64,000 bases of DNA from CBDCXE01 sp965223725 [NCBI: Nitrospinota bacterium]. Its GTDB lineage: Bacteria > Nitrospinota_A > UBA7883. The notes under the pieces were generated by a model. That model made no database searches, was not told the DNA's origin, and saw only the letters and a program-made list of their open reading frames with translations. Shown here piece after piece: positions 991 to 47,788 of the stretch. The position numbers were made by a program, and so were the translations under genes. The stretch lies in contig CBDCXE010000003.1 of assembly GCA_965223725.1 (NCBI GenBank), positions 124,001 to 188,000 of the forward strand. Reading direction: 5' to 3'. Each line of letters starts with the position of its first letter. The first letter of the stretch is position 1.

Positions 991-1734
991 ATGAACGATA
1001 AAAGAGCGGACACAGTCTGGAAGCAGACTGCGCAGGCGAAAAACTTCCTGGAAGGGACGAGGGGCGCCATACCCCTGGCCGCGGAACAGATCGACATGAT
1101 GTTGAAGCTGCTGGTCAAAACCCAACCGGAGCTGAAAGCGTTTATGGATATCGGTTGCGGGGACGGCATCCTGGGGGCCGCTGTCCAGGCGCGTTTTCCG
1201 GAATCGTCGGGTGTGTATATCGATTTCTCCGATACCATGCTCAATGCCGCCTGCGAACGACTGGAAGCCAGCGGGCGGGCGCATGAGATTATCAGCGCTG
1301 ATATAAAGGACCACCAGTGGATGGATAAGGTTTCGAAATTCGCTCCGTTCGACGCTGTCATTTCCGGATACGCCATCCACCACCAGACGACGGAACGGAA
1401 AAGAGAGATTTATGGCGAAATCCATGACTTGCTGAAGCCGGGCGGGATTTTTTTGAACATCGACAATGTTTCTTCGCCGACGGAGTGGTTGGCCAGGCTG
1501 TTCGAAGAGGATTTTGTCAACCGGTTGTATGACTACAACAAAAACCGTGGCGCCGGGAAGAGCCGGGAGGAGCTGTGGGACGAATGGTCCGGCAGGCGGG
1601 CCGAGGACCTGGAGGTGACCACACCCTTGGACATCCAGCTCGAGTGGCTGCGGGAAATAGGCTACGAAAACGTCGACTGCTATATAAAATATTACGAGCT
1701 GGTCATGTTCGGCGGGTGGCGAACGCCACTTTAA
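991..1734 (+). CDS. class I SAM-dependent methyltransferase
   Basis: The 247-residue protein has a Rossmann-type methyltransferase fold. Motif I is DIGCGDGILG near residue 53, an acidic strand-2 end follows (GVYIDFSDTML), and motif post-II/III is seen in the stretch around DAVISGYAIHH. A later LLKPGGIFLNID is typical of motif VI. The substrate cannot be read from the sequence. The start ATG at 991 follows a purine stretch GAGAG. The final codons overlap repeat copy B (1716-1780), so the C-terminal WRTPL is encoded by repeat sequence. It is probably monocistronic. Confidence 0.85.
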   Translation: MNDKRADTVWKQTAQAKNFLEGTRGAIPLAAEQIDMMLKLLVKTQPELKAFMDIGCGDGILGAAVQARFPESSGVYIDFSDTMLNAACERLEASGRAHEIISADIKDHQWMDKVSKFAPFDAVISGYAIHHQTTERKREIYGEIHDLLKPGGIFLNIDNVSSPTEWLARLFEEDFVNRLYDYNKNRGAGKSREELWDEWSGRRAEDLEVTTPLDIQLEWLREIGYENVDCYIKYYELVMFGGWRTPL

Positions 1735-1780
1735 GCCCTGACGGGAAAGTTGGAGCTGCTCTTCTGTTTGCATATCCATC
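1716..1780 (+). repeat. dispersed repeat with conserved hairpin, copy B
   Basis: This 65-bp element is the partner of 531-596. It has GTGGCGaaCGCCAC at its left end and CTGTTTGCATATCCATC at its right end. It overlaps the 3' end of the methyltransferase gene. It could act as a transcript end or mRNA-stabilising hairpin; no U-tract follows directly. Confidence 0.6.
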
Positions 1781-1955
1781 TTTGCTGGCCCTGTTATTCA
1801 TAAAAGAGCGCCTTACCACAGTTGAAATCATCCATTCATCTCAATTTATGGGCCATAAAGGGCCTTTTTCATGTTATTATGTACAGTAACTGCATGAAAA
1901 ATTGCAAATATCTGCTTTCAGGGAGATTAAGTACGCCGTGATCGGCGACATTGTC

Positions 1956-2038
1956 GCGAAAGTGGCGGAACTGGCAGACGCGCTGGATTTAGGATCCAGT
2001 GGGCAACCGTGGGGGTTCGAATCCCCCCTTTCGCACCA
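1956..2038 (+). tRNA. tRNA-Leu (anticodon UAG)
   Basis: The acceptor arms GCGAAAG and CTTTCGC pair perfectly, followed by an encoded ACCA. The anticodon loop carries TTTAGGA between the arms CTGGA and TCCAG, giving anticodon UAG, which reads CUA and other CUN leucine codons. A long class II variable arm and a T-loop GTTCGAATC are visible. It lies about 55 bp upstream of tig. Confidence 0.95.
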
Positions 2039-2092
2039 ACTATGATTCCAGGGCGCCATGATTGGCGTTTCGGTTTGTAAAGGAGAATTTTT

Positions 2093-3397
2093 TTGAAGAT
2101 TGAACTGCAGGATGTCGAGTCCTGTGTTAAGAAAATATCTATCGAAGTGCCTATAGAAACAATAAATGAAGAAAAATCCGCAGTATACGATGAACTAGCC
2201 AAAACAGTTGACATACCAGGGTTCCGTAAAGGCAAAATTCCGCGCAAGGTTCTGGAAAAGCGTATGTCCAAATCTGTTCTGGCGGAGTCGGCCCAGCGGC
2301 TGATGGACAAGGCGTATCGTGAAGCGATAGAGTCGAACAAACTGCAGCCGATCAGCGAGCCGAAAATAGACAACGTTACAATCGAAGAAGACGTTCCGCT
2401 CTCGTTCACCGCCACCATCGAGACGTTTCCTGAATTTGAAATCGGTGATATAACCGGCCTGGAGTTCGAGCGGAAGATTGCGCCGGTCACAGATGCGTCT
2501 GTGGACAATATCGTTAACGAAATGCGGGAACGGCATGCCCGGTTCGAGCCGGTGGACGACAGGGCGATCGAAGAGGATGACTATCCGCTGCTCGACTACA
2601 GCGCCACCAAAGATGGCGAAGAAGTCAGCATGCTGAAAGGCGAAAACAAGCAGGTGAACGTATCCAAAACCGATATGCTCAAAGGCTTCCATGAAAATGT
2701 TCTTGGGATGAAAAAGGGCGAGGAGAAAGAGTTCGACGCGCAATTGCCCAAGGAGTTCCCCGACCCGGAGCTGGCGGAGGCGAACATACATTTCAAGGTC
2801 AAGGTAAACGAAATAAAGAAAAAGGTATTGCCGGAGCCGGATGACGATTTCGCCAAGGAGACCTCGCAGTTCGAGACCATGGCCGAGTTGCGGGACGACC
2901 TGCGGCAAGGACTGGAAGAGCGAAACAACTCCATGGCGGACGAGGGCCTGCGCAACGAAATCATGAATACACTGATAGAAAAAAATCCTTTCGACCTGCC
3001 CCCTGGCATGATCGACAAGACCGCCGAGTCGATGGCGAAGCAGGCAGGCCAAAGGTTTGCGGCTGGTGGCGGCGATTTGGAAAACAGTGGGTTCGAGCTG
3101 GATAAAGTAAAAGAGGATATGCGCGATAACGCCATCAGAGAGATTAAGGAAGAGGCAATCATGGCCGAGTTCGCGAAGAAAGAAAACACCGATGTGTCTG
3201 AAGAGGACCTGGATAAAGAGATCGATACGCTAGCCAAAATGATGGGCCAGCCGATGGAAGAGACCCGCAATCAGCTGGCCAATTCCGGTGGTATCAACGG
3301 GCTGTATCATAAGGTGTTCAAGGACAAGGTATTTAACGAAATAAAAAATAAAGTGACGATAAAAGATCAAATAATAGAGGTAGTAGATGACAAATAA
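2093..3397 (+). CDS. tig: trigger factor, ribosome-bound chaperone and PPIase
   Basis: The 434-residue length matches the family. The N-terminal ribosome-binding domain has the signature GFRKGKIP at residues 43-50, which docks on ribosomal protein L23. A central FKBP-like domain (about 150-245) and a helical C-terminal cradle rich in K/E follow. Translation starts at TTG 2093, preceded by the strong Shine-Dalgarno AAGGAG at 2080-2085. It folds nascent chains in the cytosol. The 3' end overlaps clpP by 11 bp, so the two are probably co-translated in the classical tig-clpP-clpX-lon order. Confidence 0.97.
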
Positions 3398-4079
3398 ATA
3401 TGGACACCCATTTGACACGCAAAATAATGTTGAATTCGCTGACCCGGCGGCGATAAGGGCGCAGATGCTGGTGCCGATCGTCGTGGAGCAGACCAACCGG
3501 GGCGAGCGGTCATACGATATATACAGCCGGCTGTTGAAGGACAGGATCATATTCCTGGGCACGCCGATAGACGACTATATAGCCAACCTGATCATCGCGC
3601 AGCTGATCTTTCTGGAGGCGGACGACCCGGGCCAGGACGTGTTCCTGTATGTCAACAGCCCTGGCGGCATAGTCTCCTCCGGCCTGGCCATATACGACAC
3701 CATGCAATACATCAAGCCGGACATACAGACCATCTGCATAGGCCAGGCGGCTTCCATGGGCGCCGTGCTGCTGGCCGCTGGCGCCAAGGGCAAACGCCAC
3801 GCCCTGCCCAACAGCCGGGTGATGATCCATCAGCCCTCCGGCGGGTTCCAGGGGCAGGCGTCTGATATAGAGATCCAGTCGCGCGAGATCAGGAAACTGC
3901 GCGACCGTCTGGATAGCATACTGGCCAAACACACCGGCCAGACTACAGACAAAATATCGACAGATTCCGACCGCGACTTTTTCATGTCGGGTGAAGAGGC
4001 GATGGAGTATGGCCTGGTGGATGCGGTGATCGAGTCCCGCCCGGACCTGAAGAAAACAGACAACAGCGAGAAAGAGTGA
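3387..4079 (+). CDS. clpP: ATP-dependent Clp protease proteolytic subunit
   Basis: A 230-residue serine protease that forms the tetradecameric chamber of ClpXP. The catalytic triad is visible as Ser123 (GQAASMGA), His148 (MIHQPSGG) and Asp197 (DRDFFMS). The start at 3387 lies inside the end of tig. A second possible start is Met27, just before LVPIVVEQT, which is closer to the usual N-terminus; the extra 26 residues may be propeptide or reflect a later true start. clpX follows after 34 bp. Confidence 0.97.
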
Positions 4080-4113
4080 CAATCATTCAAAAATAACAAG
4101 GTGAGGAATTAAC

Positions 4114-5364
4114 ATGGCGAAGAAAAGACCAGCGGACAGTCCCCAGTGCTCTTTCTGCGAAAAGGGCCAGGATGAAGTGGAAAAGCTGATTGCAGGATCC
4201 TCAGTATATATTTGCGATGAATGCATCGACCGGTGCAACGAAATCATACTGGAGGAATGGAACCAGAAAAAAGGCTTCTCCTCGCCGTCGTTGCCAAAGC
4301 CTCAGGAAATCTATGAAACCTTGAACGATTATGTGGTGGGGCAGAACCAGGCGAAAAAGGTTCTGTCGGTGGCGGTGTACAACCACTATAAACGGATCGA
4401 CGCCAACCTCAGCCCGGAGGATGTGGAACTGCAGAAAAGCAACGTGATGCTGATCGGCCCCACCGGCGCCGGCAAAACGCTGCTGGCCCAGACGCTGGCC
4501 AAGGTGCTGCAGGTTCCTTTTACTATCGTAGACGCCACCACGCTGACCGAAGCGGGCTATGTGGGCGAGGATGTGGAGAACATCATCCTGCGGCTTTGCC
4601 AGGCGGCTGATTACGATATAGAAAAAACCGAGCGCGGAATCATCTACATCGACGAGATAGACAAAATCTCGCGCAAAAGCGAAAACATGTCGATCACCCG
4701 CGATGTGTCGGGTGAGGGTGTGCAGCAGGCTCTGCTGAAAATCATCGAGGGCACCGTCGCCTCCGTGCCGCCCCAGGGCGGCCGCAAGCATCCGCATCAG
4801 GAGTTCATGCAGGTGGACACCTCCAACATCCTGTTCATATGTGGCGGCGCGTTCGTCAGGCTGGACAAGATTATTGAGCAGCGGATCGGCCGGAAGATGA
4901 TGGGTTTTGGCGCCAAGCTGAAAGATAAAAAGGATATCGCCATCGGCGAAGTGCTGGAGCAGGTCCGCCCGGAGGATCTGCTGAAGTTCGGATTAATACC
5001 AGAGTTTATCGGCCGGCTGCCTGTGGTGGCCACGTTGCAGGACCTGGACGAGGACTCCCTGATCAAGATATTGACCGAGCCGAAAAACGCGCTGGTCAAA
5101 CAGTTCTCCAAATTTTTCGATCTGGAACATGTGAACCTGAAATTCACCGACGGCGCCTTGCGCGCCATCGCCAAGGAAGCGGTCAAACGGAAAACCGGCG
5201 CCCGCGGCCTGCGCTCCATTCTGGAAGAGATCATGCTCGACCCGATGTATGAGCTGCCCAGCAAGCCGGAGATAACGGAATGTATAGTTAACGAAGACGT
5301 AATTTTAAACAGAGAGCAGCCATTGATGCTTTTCAAGCAAGAGGATACGAAACAGGCCAGCTGA
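4114..5364 (+). CDS. clpX: ClpX, AAA+ unfoldase of the ClpXP protease
   Basis: 416 residues. The N-terminal zinc-binding domain has Cys12, Cys15, Cys34 and Cys37. The AAA+ module shows Walker A GPTGAGKT (115-122), pore loop GYVGEDVE (149-156) and Walker B IIYIDEID with Asp180 and Glu181. A C-terminal [10 protein letters not shown] block belongs to the small lid domain. The loop that docks ClpP reads GFGAKL here. It unfolds tagged substrates and feeds them to ClpP, encoded just upstream. Confidence 0.97.
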
Positions 5365-5468
5365 TAACCGGCCTGCACAACCGCCATATAACAGGCGGCA
5401 AGGGGCAAGTTGGCGCGCCTGCCGATATCCTTTCCGGATTTGGCTGATTGATATATTGGTAGATAAAA

Positions 5469-7922
5469 ATGAACGACAAAGCTGACTCCACACCTCCTTT
5501 CAACTGGGACAACCCGGTCCCCCTCCTTCCCCTTCGCGACATTGTTGTGTTCCCCGGCATGGTGACGCCGCTGTTCGTCGGGCGGGAGAAATCGGTAAGC
5601 GCCCTGGAAGACGCGTTCGAAGGCGCCAAATATATAATGCTGGCCGCCCAGAAGGACGCCGTGGTCAACGACCCGCCCACCGACGGAATCTACGAGGTGG
5701 GTTGTCTCTCTGTTATTTTGCAGATCCTCCGCCTGCCGGACGGCACTGTGAAGGCGCTGGTGGAGGGGCTGGAGCGCGCCTGCATCAAGGAGTACATGAA
5801 AAACGACGATTTTTTCAAGGTGCAGGTGGAGCGGATAGAATCGGAAGCCAGCTTTGACACGGAGATATCGACGCTGACCAAGGCCGCGCAGTCACTGTTC
5901 GACCGATACATGAAGCTCAACCCCGGCATCTCCAAAGAGATCGCCCACGGCCTGTCGATAATGGAAGATCCGGAATCTTTTTCCGACGCGGCGGCGGCGC
6001 ACCTGATCTCCGGCGCCAGCGAAAAACAGCAGATCCTCGAAGCGCTGAATGTGAAAAAGCGGCTGGAGCTGCTGATTGAAAAGATGCAGGAAGAGATGGA
6101 AGTGCTGAAAATCGAAAAGAAGGTCCGTGGCCGGGTCAAGAAGCAGATGGAGAAGACGCAACGCGATTACTATCTGACCGAGCAGATGAAAGCGATCCAG
6201 AAAGAGCTGGGCAGAACCGACGGCGAGAAGACCGAGTTCGAGGAGATTAACGATAAAATCGAAGCGGCTGGTATGCCTAAAGAGGTTAAGGACAAAGCGG
6301 TGAAAGAGCTGGCTCGATTGGAGCAGATGCCGCCGATGTCGGCCGAGGGCACGGTGGTCCGCAACTATCTGGACTGGCTGGTGGATGTGCCGTGGAAGAA
6401 GCGGACCAAGGACAAGCTGGATATCAAGATGGCCGCAAAGATCCTGGATGAGGACCACTACGGACTGGAGAAGGTGAAGGAGCGGATCCTGGAATACCTG
6501 TCCGTGCGCAAGCTGGTGAAAAAAATCAAAGGGCCGATCATCTGTTTCGTCGGCCCGCCGGGCGTGGGCAAAACCTCGCTGGGCAAATCGATCGCCCGGG
6601 CCATGGGGCGCAAGTTCGTCCGGTTCTCGCTGGGCGGTATCCGGGACGAGGCGGAGATCCGGGGCCATCGGCGCACATACATAGGCTCGCTGCCGGGCCG
6701 GATCATCCAGAGCATGAAAAAGGCGGGGACAAAAAACCCGGTGATCATGCTCGACGAGATCGACAAAGTATCGTCCGATTTCCGGGGTGACCCGTCGTCG
6801 GCGCTGCTCGAAGCGCTCGACCCGGAACAGAACACAGCGTTCAACGACCATTACCTGGAGGTGGACTACGACCTTTCGGAGGTGATGTTTATAACAACCG
6901 CCAACGTGTTGCACACCATCCCCCGTCCGTTGCAGGACCGGATGGAGATCATCAACATATCCGGGTACACAGACGATGAAAAAGCTTCTATTGCTCAAAA
7001 GTTTCTGCTACCAAAACAGCTGAAGGAAAACGGGCTGGATGAAAAGAGCGTGGCGCTTTCCGAAGAGATGCTGCAACTGATCATCAGCGGCTACACGAAG
7101 GAGGCGGGCGTCCGGAACCTGGAGAGAGAGCTGGCCCGGCTTTGCAGAAAAGTGGCGCGTAAAGTGGCGGAGAAATCTGGCAAGGGCAAATCGAAAAAAA
7201 CGAAGAAGACACAAGAAAAAGTCACCGATGAAAAAACGTTGGTCGAATACCTGGGCGAGATAAAATTCCGGTCGGACCAGAAGGAGAAAAAGAGCGGATC
7301 TGGCGTGGCCACCGGCCTGGCCTGGACCCAGTTCGGCGGCACGTTGCTGAAGATCGAGACGATCATCCTGGAAGGGAAGACCAAGTTTATCCTGACCGGC
7401 AAGCTGGGCGAAGTGATGAAGGAGTCGGCCCAGGCGGCGTTTTCATATATCCGGTCGCGGGCGAAGGATTTCGGGTTGAGCAAAGGGTTCCATAACAAGA
7501 TCGACATCCATATCCACATCCCGGAGGGCGCCATCCCGAAGGATGGTCCATCCGCAGGTATCACGCTGGCCACTTCCATCGTCTCGTCGCTGTTGAACAT
7601 CCCGGTGCGGCACGACCTGGCAATGACCGGCGAAATAACCTTGCGCGGTCAGGTGCTGCCGATTGGCGGGCTGAAGGAGAAGCTGTTGGCGGCGCATCGG
7701 GCGGGTGTCCGGCAGGTGCTTATCCCAAAAGAAAACGAGCGGGACATCAAGGAAATCCCGGACAACGTGAAAAAGGATTTAAAAATAACCCCTGTGGAGC
7801 ATCTGGATGAGGTGTTGAAACTGGCGCTGACCAAGTCGCCCTGGAAGAAGAACGGGCCCGGCTCCAAATCCACCACGAAACAAAAAAAACCGGAAACCGG
7901 TCACGATATCGTGCTGAATTAA
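5469..7922 (+). CDS. lon: Lon protease (LonA type)
   Basis: 817 residues. The N-terminal substrate-binding domain opens with [15 protein letters not shown], and a coiled-coil segment follows. The AAA+ domain has Walker A GPPGVGKT (362-369) and Walker [10 protein letters not shown]. The C-terminal protease domain has the Ser-Lys dyad Ser695 (DGPSAGI) and Lys738 (GGLKEK). Between AAA+ and protease lies a lysine-rich insert ([12 protein letters not shown]) that is more charged than usual. It degrades misfolded and regulatory proteins in the cytosol. It sits 104 bp after clpX and may have its own promoter. Confidence 0.97.
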
Positions 7923-7962
7923 TCTATAATTAAATAATAGATACAAAATACAGGTAGTAACA

Positions 7963-9087
7963 ATGGAACCAGCATTTCCGAATCCAATAGGGACCTTGAT
8001 CCTTTTAGGGATTTTGATGTTTATAGTTTTTCGAGTTCTTTCCTCGCTCAGCCGGCAAGACGAGCAATCCACCGGCCCCAAAAGCAGCAAAGGAAAGATA
8101 CTTCCGTTTAGAAACAGGCAAGCGCCGCCCAATCCACCGACCATAGAGCTGATAAGTCACACTGGTCCGGAGGACCCGTTCGCCGATAAAAGCGACGCTA
8201 TGGAAGCGCACAAAATGCTGATAGAGAAAGGCGGGCTCAGCCGGATCGGTGACTTTAAAATAAAAGAGATACCAGGGTTTATCATACGTTCGTTCACCCA
8301 TCCGGACCAGTTCCTGCTGGGTGTGCTGTTTCGCGGTCCGGAAGACAGGGTGTGGGTCAACCTGGTCACCGAATATAAAGATGGGCGGGTGATCACCACC
8401 AGCTCCGCCGAGCGGGGTATGATTTCGCCTTCGAGGCCGTGGGGTATGCCGCTGTTCAACTTTCCTGACCTGTCGACAGACCAGCTCCTTCGTCGGCATA
8501 AGCTGGAGGTTCGGGGCAATGAGCAGAGCCCGGCCCTGCCGCCGGAAAAGTTCCCGGAATATTTTGCGGCAAACTATGCCAAACTAAGGGCGCATATAGA
8601 TGAAAAACAGACCTCGCTGAAGGAAGTTTCCGGCGGCGATCGGTCATACGCGCCTGTGCCGGTGGGTCTTCCGGCTAGTGATGAGCAAAGCGACGCCGCC
8701 ACCGAAGATGACCAATCGGGTGAAAACGAGCTGGCGCCGTCCCGCGCCCAACTGACGGAATGGCTGAACCTTATCTATGCGAAAATGAATATTCCTCCGA
8801 AGGATCGCTCCCGGTTCCGTCGTGGACTTGTCTGGATCGCTGAGCAGGCCAGCGGCGAATCGGTGATAGAAACAATAACTGATTATGCAGATGTTACCAT
8901 TGAAAGCACACCCACAGGCCAGCTGGTGATACGCACTTCCCAAGGCGCGGAGGATATAATTGAACCAGACGACCTGAAAGGGACCGCGTTGTTCGACAAG
9001 ATCAACTCATGCCTGCCTGAAGGTAGCCGGTTTACCAGGTTGCCGGTCGATAGCAAAGGCGTGGCGTTTTACAGCAGGGCGACATAG
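7963..9087 (+). CDS. membrane-anchored protein of unknown function
   Basis: 374 residues, not recognised. One N-terminal transmembrane helix (about residues 9-27) is followed by a basic, serine- and proline-rich linker. A soluble region of about 130 residues contains GFIIRSFTHPDQFLLGV and DRVWVNLVTEYKDGRVITTSS. A second acidic linker precedes a C-terminal segment with LNLIYAKMNIPPKDRSRFRRGL. The ATG at 7963 gives a sensible membrane anchor. The gene follows lon by 40 bp in the same direction and may be co-transcribed. Confidence 0.75.
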   Translation: MEPAFPNPIGTLILLGILMFIVFRVLSSLSRQDEQSTGPKSSKGKILPFRNRQAPPNPPTIELISHTGPEDPFADKSDAMEAHKMLIEKGGLSRIGDFKIKEIPGFIIRSFTHPDQFLLGVLFRGPEDRVWVNLVTEYKDGRVITTSSAERGMISPSRPWGMPLFNFPDLSTDQLLRRHKLEVRGNEQSPALPPEKFPEYFAANYAKLRAHIDEKQTSLKEVSGGDRSYAPVPVGLPASDEQSDAATEDDQSGENELAPSRAQLTEWLNLIYAKMNIPPKDRSRFRRGLVWIAEQASGESVIETITDYADVTIESTPTGQLVIRTSQGAEDIIEPDDLKGTALFDKINSCLPEGSRFTRLPVDSKGVAFYSRAT

Positions 9088-9098
9088 CCCCGCTGGTT

Positions 9099-9476
9099 TC
9101 ACAGCCCGTTGATCACGATATCCGCGAACTCCGATATTTTCTTGTCGTTTAGTCTCACACCGGAATTTATCATTATCGCGTCGTAGTATATATTGCCCCA
9201 ATCGCCCACCTCGCTGAACTGCGCCTCCAGGGCGCGGGATACGCTACGTTTTATTATCTCCGCAATATTCATCGGGGCCAGGTTTGGTGTGGCGGTGATA
9301 GATATTTTGTGATACTCCGGTGTGAAAACGATCTTTGTGAGCGAGGAGTTGAGCAGCTCCAGCTCCATTTTGATAATCTGTTTGCAGGCTTTCTCCATAT
9401 CTTTTGTCATTGGCGGGTCTAGCCTGGGCAACAGCACCATAATATATTTTAATTCGGATACAACAGAGAGACTCAT
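9099..9476 (-). CDS. conserved-looking protein of unknown function
   Basis: 125 residues, soluble, with no signal peptide and no motif I recognise. The sequence alternates helices and strands (MEKACKQIIKMELELLNSS, then KIVFTPEYHKISITATP). It starts about 60 bp from, and diverges from, thiD; the shared spacer is AT-rich and contains the 10-bp palindrome TACTATAGTA at 9492-9501. It ends 11 bp from the convergent 7963-9087 gene. Confidence 0.65.
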   Translation of the reverse strand: MSLSVVSELKYIMVLLPRLDPPMTKDMEKACKQIIKMELELLNSSLTKIVFTPEYHKISITATPNLAPMNIAEIIKRSVSRALEAQFSEVGDWGNIYYDAIMINSGVRLNDKKISEFADIVINGL

Positions 9477-9537
9477 TTCTTCCTTCTTTTATACTATAGT
9501 AATAGTGTAGACCTATGATACTTGGAAAATATAACAA

Positions 9538-10341
9538 ATGGTGATAAAAAATATTGCGATGACCATAGCCGGGTCCGATAGTGGCGCGGGGGCGGGCATT
9601 CAGGCCGACCTGAAAACCTTCGCCGCCAACGGGGTCTACGGGACCAGCGTGATCACCGCTCTGACCGCCCAAAACAGTGTGACAGTGGCAGGGGTCCACC
9701 CGGCGCCCGCCGAATTTATCGCCCTCCAGATAGACACCTTGTTCGATGATATACAGATAAACGCCGTGAAAACCGGCATGCTGTTCAACGAAGCCATAAT
9801 CCGCGCCGTGGCGGACCGGCTGGAAAAGCATAACGTCGCAAACCTGGTGATCGACCCGGTGATGATCGCGAAAAGCGGCGACAACCTGCTGGAGCCTGCG
9901 GCGGTGAACGCATTGAAAACCGCTCTGTTGCCGATGGCGCTGGTGGTCACGCCGAACATTCCGGAGGCGGAATCGCTGACCGGGATGGAGATCAGGGGTG
10001 TTGCGGATATGGAACGCGCGGCGAACCGGCTGGTCGAAATCGGCGTCCCGAACGTCGTCATCAAGGGGGGCCATATGCCAGGGGCGGAGCTGACCGATAT
10101 CCTGATGAGCGATGGCGCCATCCAACGGTTCACACGGAACAGGATCGATACCATACATACCCATGGCACTGGGTGCACATTCTCCGCCGCGATAACGGCC
10201 GGCCTCGCCAAAGGCCAGGAAGTTTTGGAAGCTGCTCAAAACGCCGCGCAGTATATTGAAAATGCTATCAGAAGCGCCAGCGCGTTGGGCGGTGGTCATG
10301 GCCCGGTGGACCATTTTTACGATTTCGGCAAAGGGAAATAG
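9538..10341 (+). CDS. thiD: hydroxymethylpyrimidine/phosphomethylpyrimidine kinase
   Basis: 267 residues, full family length. The N-terminal AMTIAGSDSGAGAGIQADLKTF stretch (split here as AMTIAGSDSGAGAG and IQADLKTF) is the ThiD signature. DPVMIAKSGDNLL and the C-terminal anion-hole motif HGTGCTFSAAITAGLA are also characteristic. It phosphorylates HMP and HMP-P for thiamine biosynthesis in the cytosol. No TPP riboswitch was recognised upstream and no other thi genes are adjacent. The ATG at 9538 is followed directly by a GTG, which could also initiate. Confidence 0.95.
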   Translation: MVIKNIAMTIAGSDSGAGAGIQADLKTFAANGVYGTSVITALTAQNSVTVAGVHPAPAEFIALQIDTLFDDIQINAVKTGMLFNEAIIRAVADRLEKHNVANLVIDPVMIAKSGDNLLEPAAVNALKTALLPMALVVTPNIPEAESLTGMEIRGVADMERAANRLVEIGVPNVVIKGGHMPGAELTDILMSDGAIQRFTRNRIDTIHTHGTGCTFSAAITAGLAKGQEVLEAAQNAAQYIENAIRSASALGGGHGPVDHFYDFGKGK

Positions 10342-10355
10342 AAACAGACCAACGG

Positions 10356-11345
10356 CTAATTCAGCAGCGCTGTGACCGGCACAATACGCACACCCATAGA
10401 CTCCAGCTTCGCGATATTTTTTTGCAGCGCGGCTATGGTCTCCGGGTATGGGTGCCCGATGCCGATGGCCGACCCGGACCGCTGGGCTGATTCGACCAGC
10501 TCCATCAACCGCTTTTCCACCAGCTCCACCTTGCGGTCGTTGTCCAGGAACACCCGCCGGCTGGCCGTGGGCACACCTGCTTTGATAGCGGTATCGTACG
10601 CTTTGGTCTGCGGAGAAGTGCGCGAATCGATAAAAAACATGTCACGCTTTTTCAACTCATCGATAACGATGGACATCTTTGCGCCCTGCTCTGTAAACAG
10701 CGAACCCATATGATTGTTGATCCCCTCCGCGCCCGGCACACTGTTCAAATGATCATCGATCAGCTTCAGGATCTCTCTTTTGCTGTGGGTCACCCGTAAT
10801 GCGCCGTCGCCCAGGCTGATGCCGTTCGATTTTGGCTCCATCGGCAGATGAAGCATGACCACCTGCCCATGCTTCTTCGCGTCCAGCGCCACCGACCGGG
10901 AATGTTTCAGGTGGGGCAATATGGAAAAAGCGATGGGGATATTCAGCGCCATCAGCTGTTTTACAACAGCCCGATCCCTGCCCAGGTCATCTATTATCAA
11001 CCCGAGCAAAGGCTTTTTGGTGAATACAGATTTCTGTTTCGATTTTGGCGCTGTCAACGATGCGATGCGCTTTTCCAGGCTGGCAGTATCATGATCTTCC
11101 GTGTCGTTGATAACCTGCTCTTCAAATATATCTTCGGCTTGCTCTACGAAATCGCCCGCCTGTTCGGTTATGGTCGCTTCACCATGATCGACACGTCCAC
11201 CCGATACAACCGACCATATTGCGCCAATAATAGCGATGAACAGAATCCCCAGCGCAATCTCATAGCCATAGCGACGTAAGAATGATTTTTTCTTACGCGA
11301 AGAGGAACGGCTCCTTCTCTTGCCACTTCGCGATGATCGAGCCAT
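10356..11345 (-). CDS. divergent polysaccharide deacetylase family protein (YibQ-like)
   Basis: 329 residues. A very basic N-terminus (RSSRSGKRRSRSSSRKKK) precedes one transmembrane helix (about 29-47), then an acidic linker, then a catalytic-type domain from about residue 110. That domain starts with LGLIIDDLGRD and contains MLHLPMEP, INNHMGS, FFIDSRTS and GIGHPYPET, typical of the YibQ-like family. It is presumably periplasmic and anchored. It is the last gene of a leftward operon with split transketolase and ctpA, an association with peptidase genes that is common for this family. Confidence 0.88.
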   Translation of the reverse strand: MARSSRSGKRRSRSSSRKKKSFLRRYGYEIALGILFIAIIGAIWSVVSGGRVDHGEATITEQAGDFVEQAEDIFEEQVINDTEDHDTASLEKRIASLTAPKSKQKSVFTKKPLLGLIIDDLGRDRAVVKQLMALNIPIAFSILPHLKHSRSVALDAKKHGQVVMLHLPMEPKSNGISLGDGALRVTHSKREILKLIDDHLNSVPGAEGINNHMGSLFTEQGAKMSIVIDELKKRDMFFIDSRTSPQTKAYDTAIKAGVPTASRRVFLDNDRKVELVEKRLMELVESAQRSGSAIGIGHPYPETIAALQKNIAKLESMGVRIVPVTALLN

Positions 11346-37849: not shown

Positions 37850-38173
37850 TTATGCCATGGCATGGCGCAGATCGATAACGCCTATAACCGCCACACAATC
37901 GCCCTTGGAGTCCCGAATAGGCGCGGCCATGACAGGTATCCCTTTATAGGGGCCGGATGTTGGCTTCTCACGCACGATCTCGTTTGTTTCCAGAACCTTT
38001 TCCAGCACCGGGCCGGTAAAATCATCATTTAATATGCGGCCAGATTCAACACGAATACCGTTCTTGTTTTTGCTGCGCATTGTAACCGGAAACTGGTCAA
38101 CTATCTGATAAACAGCCAGCGCTATCGGGGCCAACTCTTCGCCGGTAGTGTCGGCAGTAATTAAATCTTTCAT
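37850..38173 (-). CDS. DUF2111-like sensor-type protein
   Basis: 107 residues, soluble. From memory it resembles DUF2111, a domain first described in methanogens and looking like a single PAS/GAF/Roadblock-size sensory unit. GPYKGIPVMAAPIRDSKGD and VAVIGVIDLRHA are the most characteristic parts. It is the first gene of a leftward set with the mini-secretin and epimerase genes, with 10 bp to the next start. No ligand is known. Confidence 0.6.
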   Translation of the reverse strand: MKDLITADTTGEELAPIALAVYQIVDQFPVTMRSKNKNGIRVESGRILNDDFTGPVLEKVLETNEIVREKPTSGPYKGIPVMAAPIRDSKGDCVAVIGVIDLRHAMA

Positions 38174-38564: not shown

Positions 38565-38801
38565 TCAGAATGCCACTTTTCTTTCGTACGACTCTATAGA
38601 ATCGCGGGATACGCGATAAACACCACGTATTTTCAAGCCAGTAAGTTGGCCTTCCTCAATAAGACGCACAACAGTCGGCGCGCTAACACCCCACCGAACA
38701 CTTAATTGAGAAACGCCAAAATACTTTTTTCTGGATGGTCCAAGAGGGCCAAGCTTAAGTCCTGGCAAAACCAGAGTTGTATCCTTTTTTTCCAACACCA
38801 C
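38565..38801 (-). CDS. excisionase/MerR-type helix-turn-helix protein
   Basis: 78 residues from GTG 38801, chosen because GAGGAGG sits about 7 nt upstream. The domain KYFGVSQLSVRWGVSAPTV, then VRLIEEGQLTGLKIRGVYRV and SRDSIESYE, is the winged-helix fold shared by excisionases and MerR-like DNA-binding modules. It diverges from the LexA-like repressor gene across a 100-bp region with overlapping promoters. It may be a recombination directionality factor or a small regulator; no integrase is in the window. Confidence 0.75.
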   Translation of the reverse strand: MVLEKKDTTLVLPGLKLGPLGPSRKKYFGVSQLSVRWGVSAPTVVRLIEEGQLTGLKIRGVYRVSRDSIESYERKVAF

Positions 38802-38829
38802 TAAACACCTCCTCAAAGACAGATTAAAT

Positions 38830-38858
38830 TTGCCAAATCCGTCGCACACATTTATAAT
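38830..38858 (+). promoter_or_regulatory. sigma70-type promoter for the repressor gene
   Basis: TTGCCA (38830-38835), a 17-bp spacer and a perfect TATAAT (38853-38858). The expected start near 38865 falls on the edge of the palindrome at 38864-38879. Confidence 0.65.
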
Positions 38859-38879
38859 GTTAATTAACAGATCTGTTAA
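38851..38879 (-). promoter_or_regulatory. divergent sigma70-type promoter for the HTH gene
   Basis: On the minus strand TTAACA (38879-38874), a 17-bp spacer and TATAAA (38856-38851). The -35 box is the outer half of the palindrome, and the -10 boxes of the two promoters overlap, so they should exclude each other. Confidence 0.55.
38864..38879. promoter_or_regulatory. 16-bp perfect palindrome, candidate repressor operator
   Basis: TTAACAGATCTGTTAA is fully self-complementary. It covers the start site of the rightward promoter and the -35 box of the leftward one. This suits autoregulation by the adjacent XRE/S24 repressor; binding is inferred. Confidence 0.6.
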
Positions 38880-38901
38880 ATGTCAATACAAAAATTTACT
38901 A

Positions 38902-39627
38902 ATGCATAAAACAAATATTGCAGACCCGGAAGCCATTGGAAAAAGAATCAGGGCTATCAGAGGAAAGCAGACTTTGAAGCAGTTTGGCGACATTATCGGT
39001 GTTTCCCATACATCTGTCAAAAGGTATGAAGAGGGAACATTACCAGATATAAACATACTTCTGAAAATCGCCAGCGCAGGCAAAATCGACCTGGGGATGC
39101 TGATTTTGGGAGAGCTTCTTCCGGTCGATGTGCGGGAGGCCAGGCCATTGGAAATTAACATTATCGACGACAAAAAGCATAAGGCTGATGGCCTTAAAGA
39201 GTATGATTATATACCTGTTCCGATAACCGAGGGCAAGGTCGCCGCGGGCGCGCCAAGGATCATGGAAGATGATACGATCGATTACCTGCTAATACATTTC
39301 TGGATGCTTAAAAAAAGTGAAGTGTCGAAAAATATCATCGCGTGCAGGCTGGAGGGAGAGTCGATGTACCCACACCTTTCATCGGGCGACATTGTCATAA
39401 TAGACCGTGGGATAGACAAGGATAAAATCGAGGAGCGGCGAATCTACGCCATTTTCGAAAGTGGCGGTATTACAGTCAAAATGCTACAAAAAGATGGGCC
39501 GCACCTTTATCTTGTTCCCTCCAATTCCGCCGAGAAAATCCGCCATGTCGATCTGCGGGAGGTGGAGCATCCGGTCGTCGGGCTGGTGGTGGGCGCCTGG
39601 AAAAATTTTGGAGGTAAACTGGATTAG
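38902..39627 (+). CDS. XRE-family repressor with S24 (LexA/CI-like) self-cleavage domain
   Basis: 241 residues from ATG 38902. The N-terminal HTH (IGKRIRAIRGKQTLKQFGD, then SHTSVKRYEEG) is followed by a linker. The S24 domain has Ser154 in EGESMYPHL and Lys193 in TVKMLQKDG. The likely autocleavage bond is Ala115-Gly116 in KVAAGAP. Such proteins repress prophage or damage-induced genes and are inactivated by RecA-stimulated cleavage. It faces an excisionase-like gene, giving a phage-type switch arrangement. An upstream extension of the frame lies within the operator and is unlikely to be translated. Confidence 0.88.
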   Translation: MHKTNIADPEAIGKRIRAIRGKQTLKQFGDIIGVSHTSVKRYEEGTLPDINILLKIASAGKIDLGMLILGELLPVDVREARPLEINIIDDKKHKADGLKEYDYIPVPITEGKVAAGAPRIMEDDTIDYLLIHFWMLKKSEVSKNIIACRLEGESMYPHLSSGDIVIIDRGIDKDKIEERRIYAIFESGGITVKMLQKDGPHLYLVPSNSAEKIRHVDLREVEHPVVGLVVGAWKNFGGKLD

Positions 39628-39662: not shown

Positions 39663-40760
39663 TCAGTCCCCCTTGATCTGTTCTATAGTTTTTTTCACCA
39701 TATCCTCTGCGATGCCCAGGGTCAGCTCTCTGGTTATAGCGTTGATCTGTTCCAGGATCTCCGGCTGTAGGTTGTTTATGGCTCTGCCGACACCCTTTTC
39801 AATGGCTTCTTCAAAATCGCCACCTGCAAATTTATTATTTATCACATTCTTCACTTCATCTTCGATCAGCGTCTGGAAATAGCTGGTGGATATTACATCT
39901 TCCACAGCTTTCCTGGTAGCTTCTTCCCACATATGGGAGCCAGGCTCAATCTTGTCTGTAGAGGTGACAACATTGTCTGGCACATCGATAGGCTCTGTTC
40001 CGATATCACTTTCTTCCAGGATGTCGTTAGAGTCGCTTTCCAGATAATCGTACAGCTCTTTTTCAAGATCCACCGGCGTGTCATCCCGGGCGGCCGCAAA
40101 GCTGGCGCCTCGATTGTGTCTGGGTGAATTATTCTGGTCAACCAGCTCAGGCGTCTCTTCTCCGGTTGAATCGAGCAATATATCGCTCGCAACCTCGATG
40201 TCAGCATCATTCGGCTCAACATCAGCCGGGCGATCTATTTCCGCTTCCAACAGTTCTATATTGTAATCAAAACCATCATCATCCTGTTTATTATCGGTTG
40301 CTACAGTCTCTAGCAAGCTATCGAGCTGGACATCGATATCTTCAAATGAATCATCATCGCCATCTTCCTGTTGGCCAGGGTCAGCAGAAATAATTTTATG
40401 AACCTCGCTCACCATGTTTTCTGACCGAAATGGCTTTTCGAACCTTCCAGCGGCTTTCACTTTGTCAGCTTGATCAAAATCAAAATCATCCAGAGCGCTC
40501 GACATCAGATAGACAGGAATCTGCGCAGTGGAAGGGTTTCTCTTTAACGCGGCGCAAAGCTCGAACCCGTCAAGGCCAGGCATGCTCACATCCGCAATAA
40601 CCATGGATGGCTTGTATTGCACCGCCCGCTCCAGCGCTTCATCACCGTCGCGCGCAATTATCATATCTATCGCTTCATTCTCGAATGCAAGCTCAAACAC
40701 TTTCTGTATAGTAACGCTATCGTCCGCTACCACTACTTTCGGATTGTTTCCTTCAGACAT
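39663..40760 (-). CDS. response regulator with acidic linker and conserved C-terminal helical domain
   Basis: 365 residues. The N-terminal receiver domain (about 8-125) has the acidic pair Asp13/Asp14, phospho-acceptor Asp57 (IADVSMPG) and Lys in FEKPF. A very acidic low-complexity linker (about 130-265) follows. The C-terminal 90 residues (MWEEATRKAVEDVIS, then YFQTLIEDEVKN and LTLGIAEDMVKKTIEQIKG) are helical with no DNA-binding motif. Similar proteins occur in delta-proteobacterial type lineages. The output is unknown, perhaps protein binding. It is divergent from selC and the sensor pair. Confidence 0.82.
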   Translation of the reverse strand: MSEGNNPKVVVADDSVTIQKVFELAFENEAIDMIIARDGDEALERAVQYKPSMVIADVSMPGLDGFELCAALKRNPSTAQIPVYLMSSALDDFDFDQADKVKAAGRFEKPFRSENMVSEVHKIISADPGQQEDGDDDSFEDIDVQLDSLLETVATDNKQDDDGFDYNIELLEAEIDRPADVEPNDADIEVASDILLDSTGEETPELVDQNNSPRHNRGASFAAARDDTPVDLEKELYDYLESDSNDILEESDIGTEPIDVPDNVVTSTDKIEPGSHMWEEATRKAVEDVISTSYFQTLIEDEVKNVINNKFAGGDFEEAIEKGVGRAINNLQPEILEQINAITRELTLGIAEDMVKKTIEQIKGD

Positions 40761-40921: not shown

Positions 40922-41015
40922 GGAAGATGAGCGCGCCCGGTGGCGCGGCTGGACTTCAAATCCAGACAGGGGCGAATACGTCCTGGGAGGGTTCGACTCC
41001 CTTCATCTTCCGCCA
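40922..41015 (+). tRNA. selC: tRNA-Sec (selenocysteine, anticodon UCA)
   Basis: 94 nt. The 8-bp acceptor arms GGAAGATG/CATCTTCC pair perfectly with discriminator G and encoded CCA. The anticodon stem-loop CTGGActTCAaaTCCAG has the UCA anticodon at 40956-40958. A long variable arm and GGTTCGACTCC T-loop match bacterial selC. It decodes UGA as selenocysteine, so the organism should also carry selA, selB and selD, which are not in this window. selC loci are frequent integration sites. Confidence 0.96.
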
Positions 41016-41023
41016 TATCTTCA

Positions 41024-42043
41024 ATGATAACTATGGAATTAAACGACAATGAACATTCCAGCAATATGAGCATGCAGGAAGGGGCCACAACCATTCGACC
41101 GGGGCACAAGTTTGCCGCTATACTTTTCTGTTGCTCCATCACCTTGATGCTATCCACCACAGATGTGGCGCAAAGCGCCGGCAGGGATTCCACATTGATA
41201 ATAGGTCAGGTCTCCTCCAACCCGAAAGATGATTATCATAAGCTTAAACCTGTTGTTGATTACACAGTTTCGCATATGGCTGATCTGGGTATCACAGAAG
41301 GTAAAGTTGTGATGGCAAAGGATAACTTACAACTTGTTGAATATATACGTGAGGGGAAGGTGGACTGGGTGACGCAGCCGCCCTTCTCCGCCATGATCTG
41401 CATGGAAGAAACAGGCGCGGAGATCATTTTGCGCAGGTGGATAGAAGGCGCGCCCGATAACTATTCAATTATCTTTACCCATAAAGATAACAAAGTAAAA
41501 TCGCTCGATTTTCTGAAGGGTAGGACTATAGCTTATAAGGACCCAGGCTCCACAGCGTCATACCTGGCGCCCATGGCGGAGCTTCGTATGAATGGAATTG
41601 AATCGGCGCCCCTTAAAAGCGTGAATAGTAAACCAATGCCCGAAAAGGCAGGATATGTTTTCGCCGGTTCTGATTTGAATATAGCGGCATGGGTGCGCGA
41701 CAAAAAAGTAAACGCAGGGGCCATGAGCAACGTAGATTATATCAACATGAAAAAAAGCCTGGGCCCATGGCAGAAGGATATGAAAATAGTGTATGAAACT
41801 GCTCCGTTCCCGGCGGCGTTGGAGATGGTAAGACGAGACCTGGACCCAAACATCAAGCGGAGGCTGACGCAAACCTTGCTGGGCGCCCATCGAGACAAAG
41901 CCGCCGGCGCTGCCATTGCAGCCTATAATAGTACATCCAAATTTGAAAAAGTTGACCAGGGCCTGAAGCAAAAGCTGGATGATCTGGGTCAGTTTGTTAA
42001 TCTGATCCGCCCAGAAATAAAAATCAGCCGGCAGAATCTATGA
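41024..42043 (+). CDS. PhnD-like periplasmic phosphate/phosphonate-type binding protein
   Basis: About 339 residues from ATG 41024; ATG 41033 is equally plausible. Upstream frame extension would run into selC. A signal peptide (FAAILFCCSITLMLS) ends near SAG. The mature part shows the PhnD family pattern: IGQVSSNPKDDYHKLKPVV, DWVTQPPFSAMICME, LKGRTIAYKDPGSTASYLAP and VNAGAMSNVDYI. No ABC permease or ATPase is adjacent. Instead it overlaps a sensor gene by 4 bp (ATGA at 42040), so it probably acts as the periplasmic ligand sensor of that protein. Confidence 0.82.
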   Translation: MITMELNDNEHSSNMSMQEGATTIRPGHKFAAILFCCSITLMLSTTDVAQSAGRDSTLIIGQVSSNPKDDYHKLKPVVDYTVSHMADLGITEGKVVMAKDNLQLVEYIREGKVDWVTQPPFSAMICMEETGAEIILRRWIEGAPDNYSIIFTHKDNKVKSLDFLKGRTIAYKDPGSTASYLAPMAELRMNGIESAPLKSVNSKPMPEKAGYVFAGSDLNIAAWVRDKKVNAGAMSNVDYINMKKSLGPWQKDMKIVYETAPFPAALEMVRRDLDPNIKRRLTQTLLGAHRDKAAGAAIAAYNSTSKFEKVDQGLKQKLDDLGQFVNLIRPEIKISRQNL

Positions 42044-43842
42044 AGTCACTAAAGGCGCAGTTTTCAATTGCATTGGCTATATTCATAGTCATTGCCATTA
42101 CGCTATTGGTCATGTTAAACATGGTCAATCTGAAATCCACAATCAGCCAAGCAAACAAACTGACATCTGAGCAAACGCAAAACAGCCTGGCAGAGCAATT
42201 CAAATCGAAGGCGGACACAATGGCTGCATTGATTACCGATGATGTAGCAAACCACCTTTACCATACCGATTATAGCGGAATCGACCGAACCATGACCCGC
42301 GCGCTGAATATAAAGGATATATCGGCAGTTCAGCTGTTCGATGGCAGCGGGAACCTGATCTATGACGGTGTAGAAAAATTTCTGGTCAAGGATAAAACCG
42401 CCAACCGTGAAACGAACCTGCGTGTCATTGAATCAAAAAAACGTGAATTGAGGGTGAAGGATAATCTTCTGGAAGTCACCAGTCCGGTATTGATTGGCGA
42501 GGATGCCATCGGAGGAGTAAGAGCCACTTTTTCCATGGCTGACATGAACCACAATATCAAAAAATTAACCCGCAACATCAGTAGCATCAGCGACGAACAG
42601 TATAACAGCAGCCTGGCTGACATCGCCGCCATAGCGCTTGCTGCTTCGCTTCTGGTCATATTCGCGCTGGTGATACTACTCAATCGATTACTGGACCCGA
42701 TCGCCTCCCTTGCCGACGCGACAAACAGGATGGATAAGGGCGAGTATAGCGTGAACCTGCCTGTAGAGCGGCGCGATGAAGTTGGCCAACTGGCAGAGAC
42801 ATATACGAAAATGCGCAAAGAGATATGGGATCATAAGATCAGCATGGGAAAACAAGAAGAGGAGCTTGAGCGAAAAGCAAGTCTACGAATCGAGGAGCTG
42901 TTAAAAAAAACGACGGAACTGGAATCGACCCAGCAGACGCTGTTGCACGCTTCCCGGAAATATGAGGAGCTGTTTAATATCAGCAATAGCTTGCTGATGA
43001 ATTGTCCTGTGGGGATACTTCGCATTAACAAGGAGCTGGAGGTGGTTTACCTGAACAATGAAATGGAAAGGTTATTGTGCGAGGAAACCGGTGTGGGGTC
43101 AGACTTTACAGCGATGAAGATCATGAAGATTCCACAGTTCCAGTCTACGGCGTTCGCAAATGCGCTGATATCGATGGAAGATGGAAACGAAACGGTGGTT
43201 GAGAACAAATTTCTCTCACGGTTTGGCAAAGAGATATACTTGTCACTGAAGTGTACCCCGGTAATGGAGAATGGCCGGTTTGACGGAGCGGTTATATTTG
43301 TAACCGACATAACGGAATCGAGGCGGGTTGAAGAAGGTTTGCGTCGGGCCAAAGAGGAAGCGGAAAAGAAAAGCATGATGAAAAGCGAGCTGTTGGTCAA
43401 TATGGGTCACGACTCTCTTCAACCTCGAAAAAACAGTTTTGCTGGTATTGCTGATGACACAGATAGAATATTCAATATAATGCTGGTGGGCGATTTCCAG
43501 CTAAATGACCAATCACCAAAAACCGCTCTTGAAGAGCTGGGCCATAAAGTTGCGGAAGTCGATACCGGCATGGAAGCTGTGGAAAAATGGGAAAATGGTG
43601 ATTTCGACGCGTTGCTGATGGATGGGGATATGCCGTTTTCCAGCGGCATCGACGCGACCATGCTGATCCGGTTCAAGGAGAAGTCGCCCATCAACAGGAC
43701 AGTAATTATTGGCGCCACTGTGGATAAAAGAGATACGCAAAAATATCTCAGCTCCGGTATGGACGATCATTTACAAAAGCCTGTCGACATCGACCTGCTT
43801 ATCCAGACAATAGACCTCCATACGCGAGACCGCCAGAATTGA
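42040..43842 (+). CDS. hybrid sensor protein: sensor-HAMP-PAS-vestigial HisKA-REC, lacking HATPase
   Basis: 600 residues. Transmembrane helix about 7-29, periplasmic region about 30-190, second helix about 193-218, HAMP (LLDPIASLADATNRMDKGEY), coiled coil and PAS (about 305-430). A histidine-box remnant KSELLVNMGHDSLQ keeps His457 but lacks the rest of HisKA and the whole ATP-binding domain. About 25 residues later a receiver-type domain begins (FNIMLVGDFQLND) with candidate phospho-Asp528 (LLMDGDMPFSSGID) and Lys in LQKPVDID. It cannot phosphorylate itself; it must be a phosphate relay partner, a scaffold or a decaying kinase. It is translationally coupled to the PhnD-like gene. Confidence 0.85.
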   Translation: MKSLKAQFSIALAIFIVIAITLLVMLNMVNLKSTISQANKLTSEQTQNSLAEQFKSKADTMAALITDDVANHLYHTDYSGIDRTMTRALNIKDISAVQLFDGSGNLIYDGVEKFLVKDKTANRETNLRVIESKKRELRVKDNLLEVTSPVLIGEDAIGGVRATFSMADMNHNIKKLTRNISSISDEQYNSSLADIAAIALAASLLVIFALVILLNRLLDPIASLADATNRMDKGEYSVNLPVERRDEVGQLAETYTKMRKEIWDHKISMGKQEEELERKASLRIEELLKKTTELESTQQTLLHASRKYEELFNISNSLLMNCPVGILRINKELEVVYLNNEMERLLCEETGVGSDFTAMKIMKIPQFQSTAFANALISMEDGNETVVENKFLSRFGKEIYLSLKCTPVMENGRFDGAVIFVTDITESRRVEEGLRRAKEEAEKKSMMKSELLVNMGHDSLQPRKNSFAGIADDTDRIFNIMLVGDFQLNDQSPKTALEELGHKVAEVDTGMEAVEKWENGDFDALLMDGDMPFSSGIDATMLIRFKEKSPINRTVIIGATVDKRDTQKYLSSGMDDHLQKPVDIDLLIQTIDLHTRDRQN

Positions 43843-47705: not shown

Positions 47706-47788
47706 CCTTTAATAAGCAATTTCCTTATTAAAGGATAGGCTATTAAACTTTAATAAGCAAGCACCTTATTAAAGAATAGGCTATTAAA
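47706..47788. repeat. two 41-bp direct repeats, each with a long inverted repeat: candidate fic operators
   Basis: Unit 1 contains CCTTTAATAAG-7 nt-CTTATTAAAGG (47706-47734, perfect 11-bp arms). Unit 2 contains CTTTAATAAG-7 nt-CTTATTAAAG (47748-47774). Both are followed by ATAGGCTATTAAA, and a third partial half-site starts near 47789. The centres are 41 bp apart, about four helical turns. They lie 13 bp before the fic start and suit binding by its winged-helix domain. Confidence 0.75.

What the first reader, a model, noticed from the sequence alone, without database searches (positions are those of the whole stretch)
40922..43842. Binding protein and sensor pair directly downstream of selC
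Seen: selC ends at 41015, and a PhnD-like periplasmic binding protein starts within about 10 bp, then overlaps a membrane sensor by 4 bp (ATGA). There are no transporter genes. Inference: the binding protein is the ligand receptor for the sensor rather than part of an ABC importer. Known: selC is a common insertion site for genomic islands. This may be a stand-alone phosphonate, phosphite or phosphate sensing module acquired there.
Basis: partly seen in the sequence, partly recalled or inferred. Interest (0 to 1): 0.65.

Follow-up and report, generated by a model that had tools for sequence, protein, structure and literature searches.

The report
Kinase-less partner of a periplasmic receptor
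Next to a selenocysteine tRNA gene, a Nitrospinota bacterium carries a two-gene outside-to-inside sensing module of a known type (a free periplasmic receptor plus a membrane relay protein), but here the relay has lost the kinase part that most of its relatives use to pass the signal on.

Summary
In detail: selC (40922-41015), a PF12974 substrate-binding protein (SBP; ATG 41024 or later, to 42043) and a 600-aa membrane protein (42040-43842, 4-bp overlap) stand in a row, without transporter genes. The SBP is a receptor, not an importer part: its nearest solved relative is XAC2383, half of a published receptor/diguanylate-cyclase pair; it falls in a 20-row clade (support 100/99) with only sensor-linked members; and at 15 of 16 genomic places with a close relative (E<=1e-20) a membrane sensor follows (the 16th runs off its contig). 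So the kind of module is known. The odd part is the output. The partner keeps ectodomain, HAMP, PAS, the helix up to the phospho-histidine (0 of 2000 shuffles score as high) and a receiver, but lacks the rest of the kinase. All 12 receiver-bearing partners examined have it, and no such domain is found in the 64 kb. Two oxyanion-pocket residues are changed, so a phosphonate, phosphite or phosphate ligand is doubtful. Gene order breaks exactly at the selC 3' end (relatives: selC-mutS2), but no att repeat was found. It is a kinase-less relay or a decaying one; these data cannot decide.

The parts
40922..41015 (+). selC, tRNA-Sec
   Evidence: ARAGORN; Rfam RF01852 76.1 bits
41024..42043 (+). SBP, PF12974, XAC2383-type sensor-linked clade; true start may be 41066 or 41072
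   Evidence: Pfam 126 bits; PDB 5ub3 E 3.7e-57; trees
41549..41557 (+). SBP codons 176-178 (S-T-A), oxyanion-binding loop; Ala where 18 of 20 clade rows have Ser
   Evidence: alignment; pocket residues from PMC5908839 passages
42040..43842 (+). membrane transducer, 600 aa, overlaps the SBP by 4 bp
42040..42675 (+). TM helices and Cache-like ectodomain (residues 1-212)
   Evidence: alignment with SBP-linked sensors; dCache_1 sub-threshold; many relatives hit sCache_3_2 near or above its cut-off
42676..42825 (+). HAMP (residues 213-262)
   Evidence: Pfam 47.2 bits
43000..43326 (+). PAS (residues 321-429)
   Evidence: PAS_4 27.8 bits, cut-off 23.1
43315..43413 (+). truncated DHp/H-box stub, residues 426-458, ending at NMGHD
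   Evidence: H-box profile 19.1-23.8 bits, 0 of 2000 shuffles reach it
43477..43812 (+). receiver domain (residues 480-591): phospho-Asp, Thr and Lys kept, first acidic residue replaced by Gly
   Evidence: Pfam 65.6 bits; alignment
39663..40760 (-). divergent receiver-domain gene, syntenic upstream neighbour of selC in relatives

Best explanation
The two genes are a divergent member of the XAC2383-type 'free SBP plus Cache-HAMP transducer' receptor pair. The SBP captures a small solute in the periplasm and docks on the ectodomain of the overlapping membrane protein, which shifts the TM/HAMP/PAS/coiled-coil rod. In the window the rod does not end in a working kinase. It ends in a DHp stub cut just after the histidine, followed by a receiver domain. 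The ancestor was most likely a hybrid histidine kinase that lost the rest of DHp and the ATP-binding domain (roughly 200 aa). The most likely working output, which is inferred, is that the signal changes how the receiver is presented to, or dephosphorylated by, other kinases in trans. Shown: gene order, family, clade, partnership across genomes, missing kinase. Inferred: docking, ligand, use of the receiver.
For: PDB 5ub3 (XAC2383) is the best solved match, E 3.7e-57 (name). The X. sacchari relative (same PDB hit, E 4.7e-118) overlaps a GGDEF-EAL gene by 4 bp. Of 16 genomic places at E<=1e-20, 15 have a membrane sensor next (two tandem SBPs share one) and 1 runs off its contig. Pfam on 23 partner proteins, these included: 20 HATPase, 2 GGDEF-EAL, 1 MCP. 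SBP clade 100/100 (16 rows) and 100/99 (20 rows), all sensor-linked; the 9 transporter-linked rows lie outside. H-box stub above all 2000 shuffles. No HATPase in six frames of the window, while 4 of 4 control loci were found. 12 of 12 receiver-bearing partners have HATPase.
Against: No experiment and no complex model: the only fold, single-sequence, had pLDDT 36. The receiver lacks one of the two acidic residues that 13 of 13 compared receivers have. The SBP has lost two pocket residues. GC3 drops to 0.40 in codons 431-480, the junction, against 0.55-0.59 in the other parts of the gene. These could mean decay instead of use. Reverse search: 11 of 17 ectodomain matches have no SBP beside them. 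No close relative of the pair was found to test for selection.
Confidence: 0.5

Rival explanations
1. Decaying remnant: the pair was a normal SBP/hybrid-kinase receptor, lost its kinase core by an in-frame deletion and no longer signals.
For: Kinase core missing and H-box no longer recognisable after the His. One receiver acid lost. GC3 falls to 0.40 in codons 431-480. SBP deviates at 6 of 26 clade-conserved columns, incl. two pocket positions.
Against: Both frames open for 339 and 600 codons, 4-bp overlap kept, codon-position GC pattern kept in the receiver (0.58/0.32/0.58), phospho-Asp/Thr/Lys kept. Three other clade members deviate more in the SBP: 10 of 30, 8 of 26 and 7 of 27 columns.
Confidence: 0.35
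2. Assembly artefact: the kinase core is missing from the assembly, not from the organism.
For: Source record unknown; no whole genome held.
Against: The junction is in frame, and the stub departs from the H-box consensus already at and just after the histidine (MGHDSLQP), which a false join of intact sequence would not explain.
Confidence: 0.08
3. The SBP serves an importer encoded elsewhere and the sensor is a chance neighbour.
For: Same Pfam family as PhnD, PtxB and HtxB.
Against: Sensor-only clade; 4-bp overlap here and in several relatives; 0 of 20 pair loci with a PhnE relative, and none in L171-L174. PhnC-like ATPases appear in 3 of the 20 (L090, L094, L097), 2.5-3.7 kb from the SBP; by look other ABC types.
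Confidence: 0.04

Closest known systems
[quoted passage not shown] 2018, JBC; only the title seen, in the reference list of PMC10380989; paper not held)
   Same: SBP in the same supported clade as the X. sacchari relative of XAC2383; membrane partner with HAMP directly downstream; no transporter genes.
   Different: Output is a DHp stub plus receiver, not GGDEF-EAL; SBP pocket changed at two positions.
AioX/ArxX/ArrX with AioS-type kinases (PMC5908839: abstract and passages seen)
   Same: PhnD-like SBP as first component of a signalling system.
   Different: Those partner with a histidine kinase and a regulator; membership not tested here.
PhnD/PtxB/HtxB binding proteins of ABC importers
   Same: Same Pfam domain.
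   Different: No PhnC/PhnE nearby; below the PhnD cut-off; transporter-linked rows lie outside the clade.
Hybrid histidine kinases (HAMP-PAS-HisKA-HATPase-REC)
   Same: HAMP, PAS, helix up to H-box, REC.
   Different: Rest of HisKA and all of HATPase absent.

Membership tests
XAC2383-type SBP/transducer pair | SBP in the XAC2383 clade | tested here: met
   Trees: 16-row clade 100/100, 20-row 100/99, both with the X. sacchari relative; PDB 5ub3 E 3.7e-57. XAC2383 itself was not a tree row
XAC2383-type SBP/transducer pair | directly adjacent membrane partner with ectodomain and HAMP, no transporter genes | tested here: met
   4-bp overlap; N-terminus matches partners in L093-L095 at E 5e-31 to 4e-24; no PhnC/PhnE in 30-56 kb
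XAC2383-type SBP/transducer pair | enzymatic or chemotaxis output domain | tested here: not met
   No HATPase, GGDEF, EAL or MCP hit; 23 of 23 partners examined have one
XAC2383-type SBP/transducer pair | SBP binds the ectodomain | not testable with these tools
   No complex modelling; single-sequence fold failed, pLDDT 36
Oxyanion-binding PF12974 proteins | Tyr and both Ser of the anion pocket (AioX Tyr131, Ser161, Ser163) | tested here: not met
   Window N146, S176, A178. Column 146 is Tyr in 19 of 20 clade rows and 8 of 9 transporter rows; column 178 is Ser in 18 of 20 and 9 of 9. N146 matched to AioX Tyr131 by spacing, my inference
PhnCDE/PtxABC importer | permease and ATPase genes alongside | tested here: not met
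   None in 30-56 kb of the window
Hybrid histidine kinase | HisKA and HATPase | tested here: not met
AioX/ArrX three-component system | AioX-specific Cys and membership of the AioX clade | not tested
   AioX/ArrX were not put in the trees; weak phmmer hit to ArrX only
selC genomic island | synteny break at the selC 3' end | tested here: met
   MutS2 (or, in 1, its C-terminal part) lies downstream of selC in 10 of 10 relatives looked at and has no match in the window
selC genomic island | direct repeat of the tRNA 3' end | tested here: not met
   one copy only at up to 3 mismatches within 64 kb; the far end could lie outside
selC genomic island | integrase gene | tested here: inconclusive
   none among ten window proteins scanned with Pfam, the pair included; other ORFs of the window were not scanned

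The most novel reading that the evidence does not exclude
A kinase-less transducer under the control of a free periplasmic receptor: ligand binding outside switches a membrane-tethered receiver domain, which acts as a regulated phosphate sink or docking site for kinases made elsewhere in the cell.
Probability: 0.3. Interest if true: 0.65.

Novelty: new variant of a known kind. Interest (0 to 1): 0.42.

Why it matters
The comparison shows one receptor clade with four outputs (hybrid kinase, simple kinase, GGDEF-EAL, chemoreceptor) while the receptor half stays put, a good case for studying modular signalling. The window case, if it works, would be a receptor pair whose membrane half carries only a receiver, which I find unusual; I did not search print for kinase-less partners. 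If it is decaying, it shows how such a pair dies.

Tried and rejected
Whole-genome search of the window's own assembly: none held. The search for related loci with the sensor: no relatives; the PFK query was then used to place the organism in Nitrospinota and to get genome handles. Single-sequence AlphaFold of the sensor: pLDDT 36, not used. Low-GC island idea: rejected as evidence, since the syntenic REC gene has lower GC3 than the pair. selC att repeat: none. SBP in viral contigs: not run.

Selection in the counts. The 23 partner proteins are those of loci where a sensor follows; transporter-linked relatives (G180/L066, L051 and seven plasmid loci) went into the trees as such. The weaker hits (G505, G562, G557, G535, G470, G585, G466; E 3e-15 to 6e-13) were seen only as short loci and not counted: by look L071 and L074 have a kinase-like ORF next, L070 has neither a sensor nor a transporter next, the rest are unclear. 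Of 14 PF12974 places in Nitrospinota, three were opened with wide flanks and L051 was used as a transporter row; ten were not followed. The plasmid search matched 78 records and listed 40; 12 were opened: 4 sensor-linked, 7 transporter-linked, 1 unannotated. Six sensor-linked rows (L089, L090, L091, L092, L157, L165) lie outside the window's clade in the first tree. Rows L092 and L157 were dropped from the second tree because their long branches met. The second tree as a whole needs 3 label changes (sensor versus transporter), the first only 1; the clade that holds the window is supported in both. Tree rows from frames were cut to their last 345 residues or less. L173 is cut by its contig end, so a receiver beyond it cannot be excluded.

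Full report
WHAT IS THERE. The tRNA-Sec gene lies at 40922-41015. A PF12974 binding protein follows in the same direction; its earliest ATG is 9 nt after selC, but in-frame ATGs at 41066 or 41072 would give 325 or 323 aa, closer to most relatives (about 295-325 aa as longest ORFs). It overlaps by 4 bp a 600-aa membrane protein with HAMP, PAS and receiver domains and no HisKA or HATPase hit. No PhnC/PhnE-like gene is in window 30-56 kb.

WHERE IT COMES FROM. The phosphofructokinase just downstream is 67-78% identical to that of ten MAGs titled Nitrospinota, Nitrospinaceae or Nitrospirae, all ten within one phylum group of 24 genomes held. Only weak SBP relatives exist there: 2 of 24 at E<=1e-3, 0 of 24 at E<=1e-12. 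At E<=1e-12, 3 of 377 genomes of a second phylum and 9 of 198 of a third have one. At E<=1e-20, 8 of 257 genomes of one class of the third, 4 of 395 of that phylum and 1 of 377 in a second draw of the other have one; these draws overlap. The best is 43% identical (G984).

THE RECEPTOR HALF. The best solved match is 5ub3 (E 3.7e-57; next best HtxB at 4.9e-9), which PMC10942540 names XAC2383 (passage). [quoted passage not shown] I saw only the title, in a reference list, because the paper is not held. The X. sacchari relative sits on a plasmid and overlaps a GGDEF-EAL gene by 4 bp. In a tree with 9 transporter-linked relatives, 16 SBPs including the window's form a branch with support 100/100, all sensor-linked. 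With four more relatives and two long branches removed, the branch has 20 rows and support 100/99. Six further sensor-linked rows lie outside it in the first tree, so sensor linkage is not confined to this clade.

THE PARTNER HALF IN RELATIVES. At E<=1e-20 there are 16 genomic places: at 15 a membrane sensor follows (two tandem SBPs share one), and one runs off its contig. Adding weaker and plasmid loci, I scanned 23 partner proteins with Pfam: 12 hybrid kinases, 8 simple kinases (one cut by a contig end), 2 GGDEF-EAL and 1 chemoreceptor. HAMP or Cache was called in all but two: L165 (neither) and L157 (both only sub-threshold). The window's is the only one with no catalytic or chemotaxis output. 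Spacing runs from a 4-bp overlap to 105 nt, leaving aside L057, L086 and L089, whose start codon the script set too late. In the three relatives with the most similar SBP (L171, L093, L095; 40-43%), a phosphate-selective porin O/P gene lies directly upstream (PF07396, 262 and 237 bits for L171 and L093; L095 by 93% identity to L093). This hints at a phosphorus-type ligand for those relatives. Eight other pair loci searched and the window have no such porin.

THE MISSING KINASE. A profile from 10 non-redundant H-box segments (of 18 found in fetched loci) scores 19.1 bits on the window protein at residues 426-458 and 23.8 on the 80-residue segment; none of 2000 shuffles of that segment reaches it (best 6.2). 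The match stops at NMGHD, right at the phospho-histidine (residue 457), and 21 residues later the receiver begins. A HATPase profile finds nothing in six frames of the 64 kb and finds it in 4 of 4 control loci. All 12 receiver-bearing partners have a HATPase. The simplest history is an in-frame loss of most of DHp and the ATP-binding domain from a hybrid kinase. The receiver keeps the phospho-Asp, Thr and Lys but has Gly for the first of the two acidic residues that 13 of 13 compared receivers have. Codon-position GC is normal in the receiver (0.58/0.32/0.58) but GC3 drops to 0.40 in codons 431-480.

THE POCKET. In PhnD and AioX, two Tyr, two Ser and a His line one side of the oxyanion site (AioX Tyr88, Tyr131, Ser161, Ser163, His192; PMC5908839, passages). 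The window has N146, S176 and A178 at the places of Tyr131, Ser161 and Ser163. Column 146 is Tyr in 19 of 20 clade rows, column 178 Ser in 18 of 20 and in 9 of 9 transporter rows. N146 was matched to Tyr131 by its 30-residue distance from the first Ser, my inference; the other two pocket positions were not scored. Overall the window SBP deviates at 6 of 26 clade-conserved columns; three other members deviate more, so this is no proof of decay. It does make a phosphonate, phosphite or phosphate ligand doubtful.

THE selC SITE. tRNA-Sec was sought in 24 genomes; I looked at the ten with scores of 74 bits or more. In 10 of 10 a convergent MutS2 gene follows selC (full length in 9, only the C-terminal Smr part in 1), within 5-710 nt, with LysA beyond in 9 of 10 and the REC gene upstream in 8 of 10 (one a weak match over 80 residues, one 2.7 kb away). 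The window keeps the upstream REC gene (up to 65% identical) but has no MutS2 or LysA match at all. So the order broke exactly at the selC 3' end. The sequence beyond includes ordinary housekeeping genes, there is no second copy of the selC 3' end, and composition does not stand out. A rearrangement is as likely as an island.

TEST OF PARTNERSHIP IN THE OTHER DIRECTION. Residues 1-212 of the sensor found 17 places in 15 of 257 genomes. The four strongest and two more have an SBP beside them; the other 11 have no hit to my SBP profile in the fetched region. Three of the eight SBP-bearing genomes of that class (G689, G725, G729) were not found this way. Close relatives of the SBP come with a sensor, but this broad ectodomain class does not always come with the SBP.

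VERDICT. A new variant of a known kind. That the SBP is the receptor for the membrane protein is well supported by comparison. What the membrane protein does without a kinase is open: a relay whose receiver is served by other kinases, or a decaying one. I lean slightly to the former because both frames, the overlap and three of the receiver's key residues are kept, but the margin is small.

Noticed in passing
L090 (G007) 1064-6310 and L091 (G023) 3170-11042: Two Nitrospinota genomes have a PF12974 SBP overlapping a kinase by 4 bp, with a response regulator behind (sigma-54 type by Pfam in L090; L091 by look only), divergent from an Fe-S protein (Pfam in L090) and, in L091, a molybdopterin oxidoreductase; reminiscent of arsenic XSR clusters (recalled resemblance).
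   Followed up: partly
L093, L095, L171: Phosphate-selective porin O/P gene directly upstream of the SBP-hybrid kinase pair.
   Followed up: partly
L086 (G441): Two tandem SBPs of the clade share one hybrid kinase.
   Followed up: no
window 37850-38173 (-): Short gene with a strong match to DUF2111 (112 bits), a family described from archaea.
   Followed up: no
window 38565-39627: Small HTH-like ORF (by look excisionase-like) divergent from an S24/HTH repressor-like gene, 1.3-2.4 kb upstream of selC; possible phage trace. The S24 gene has a 51% relative in L010.
   Followed up: no
window 47707-47788: Two tandem copies of a 41-nt AT-rich repeat (90% alike) upstream of the Fic-family gene.
   Followed up: no
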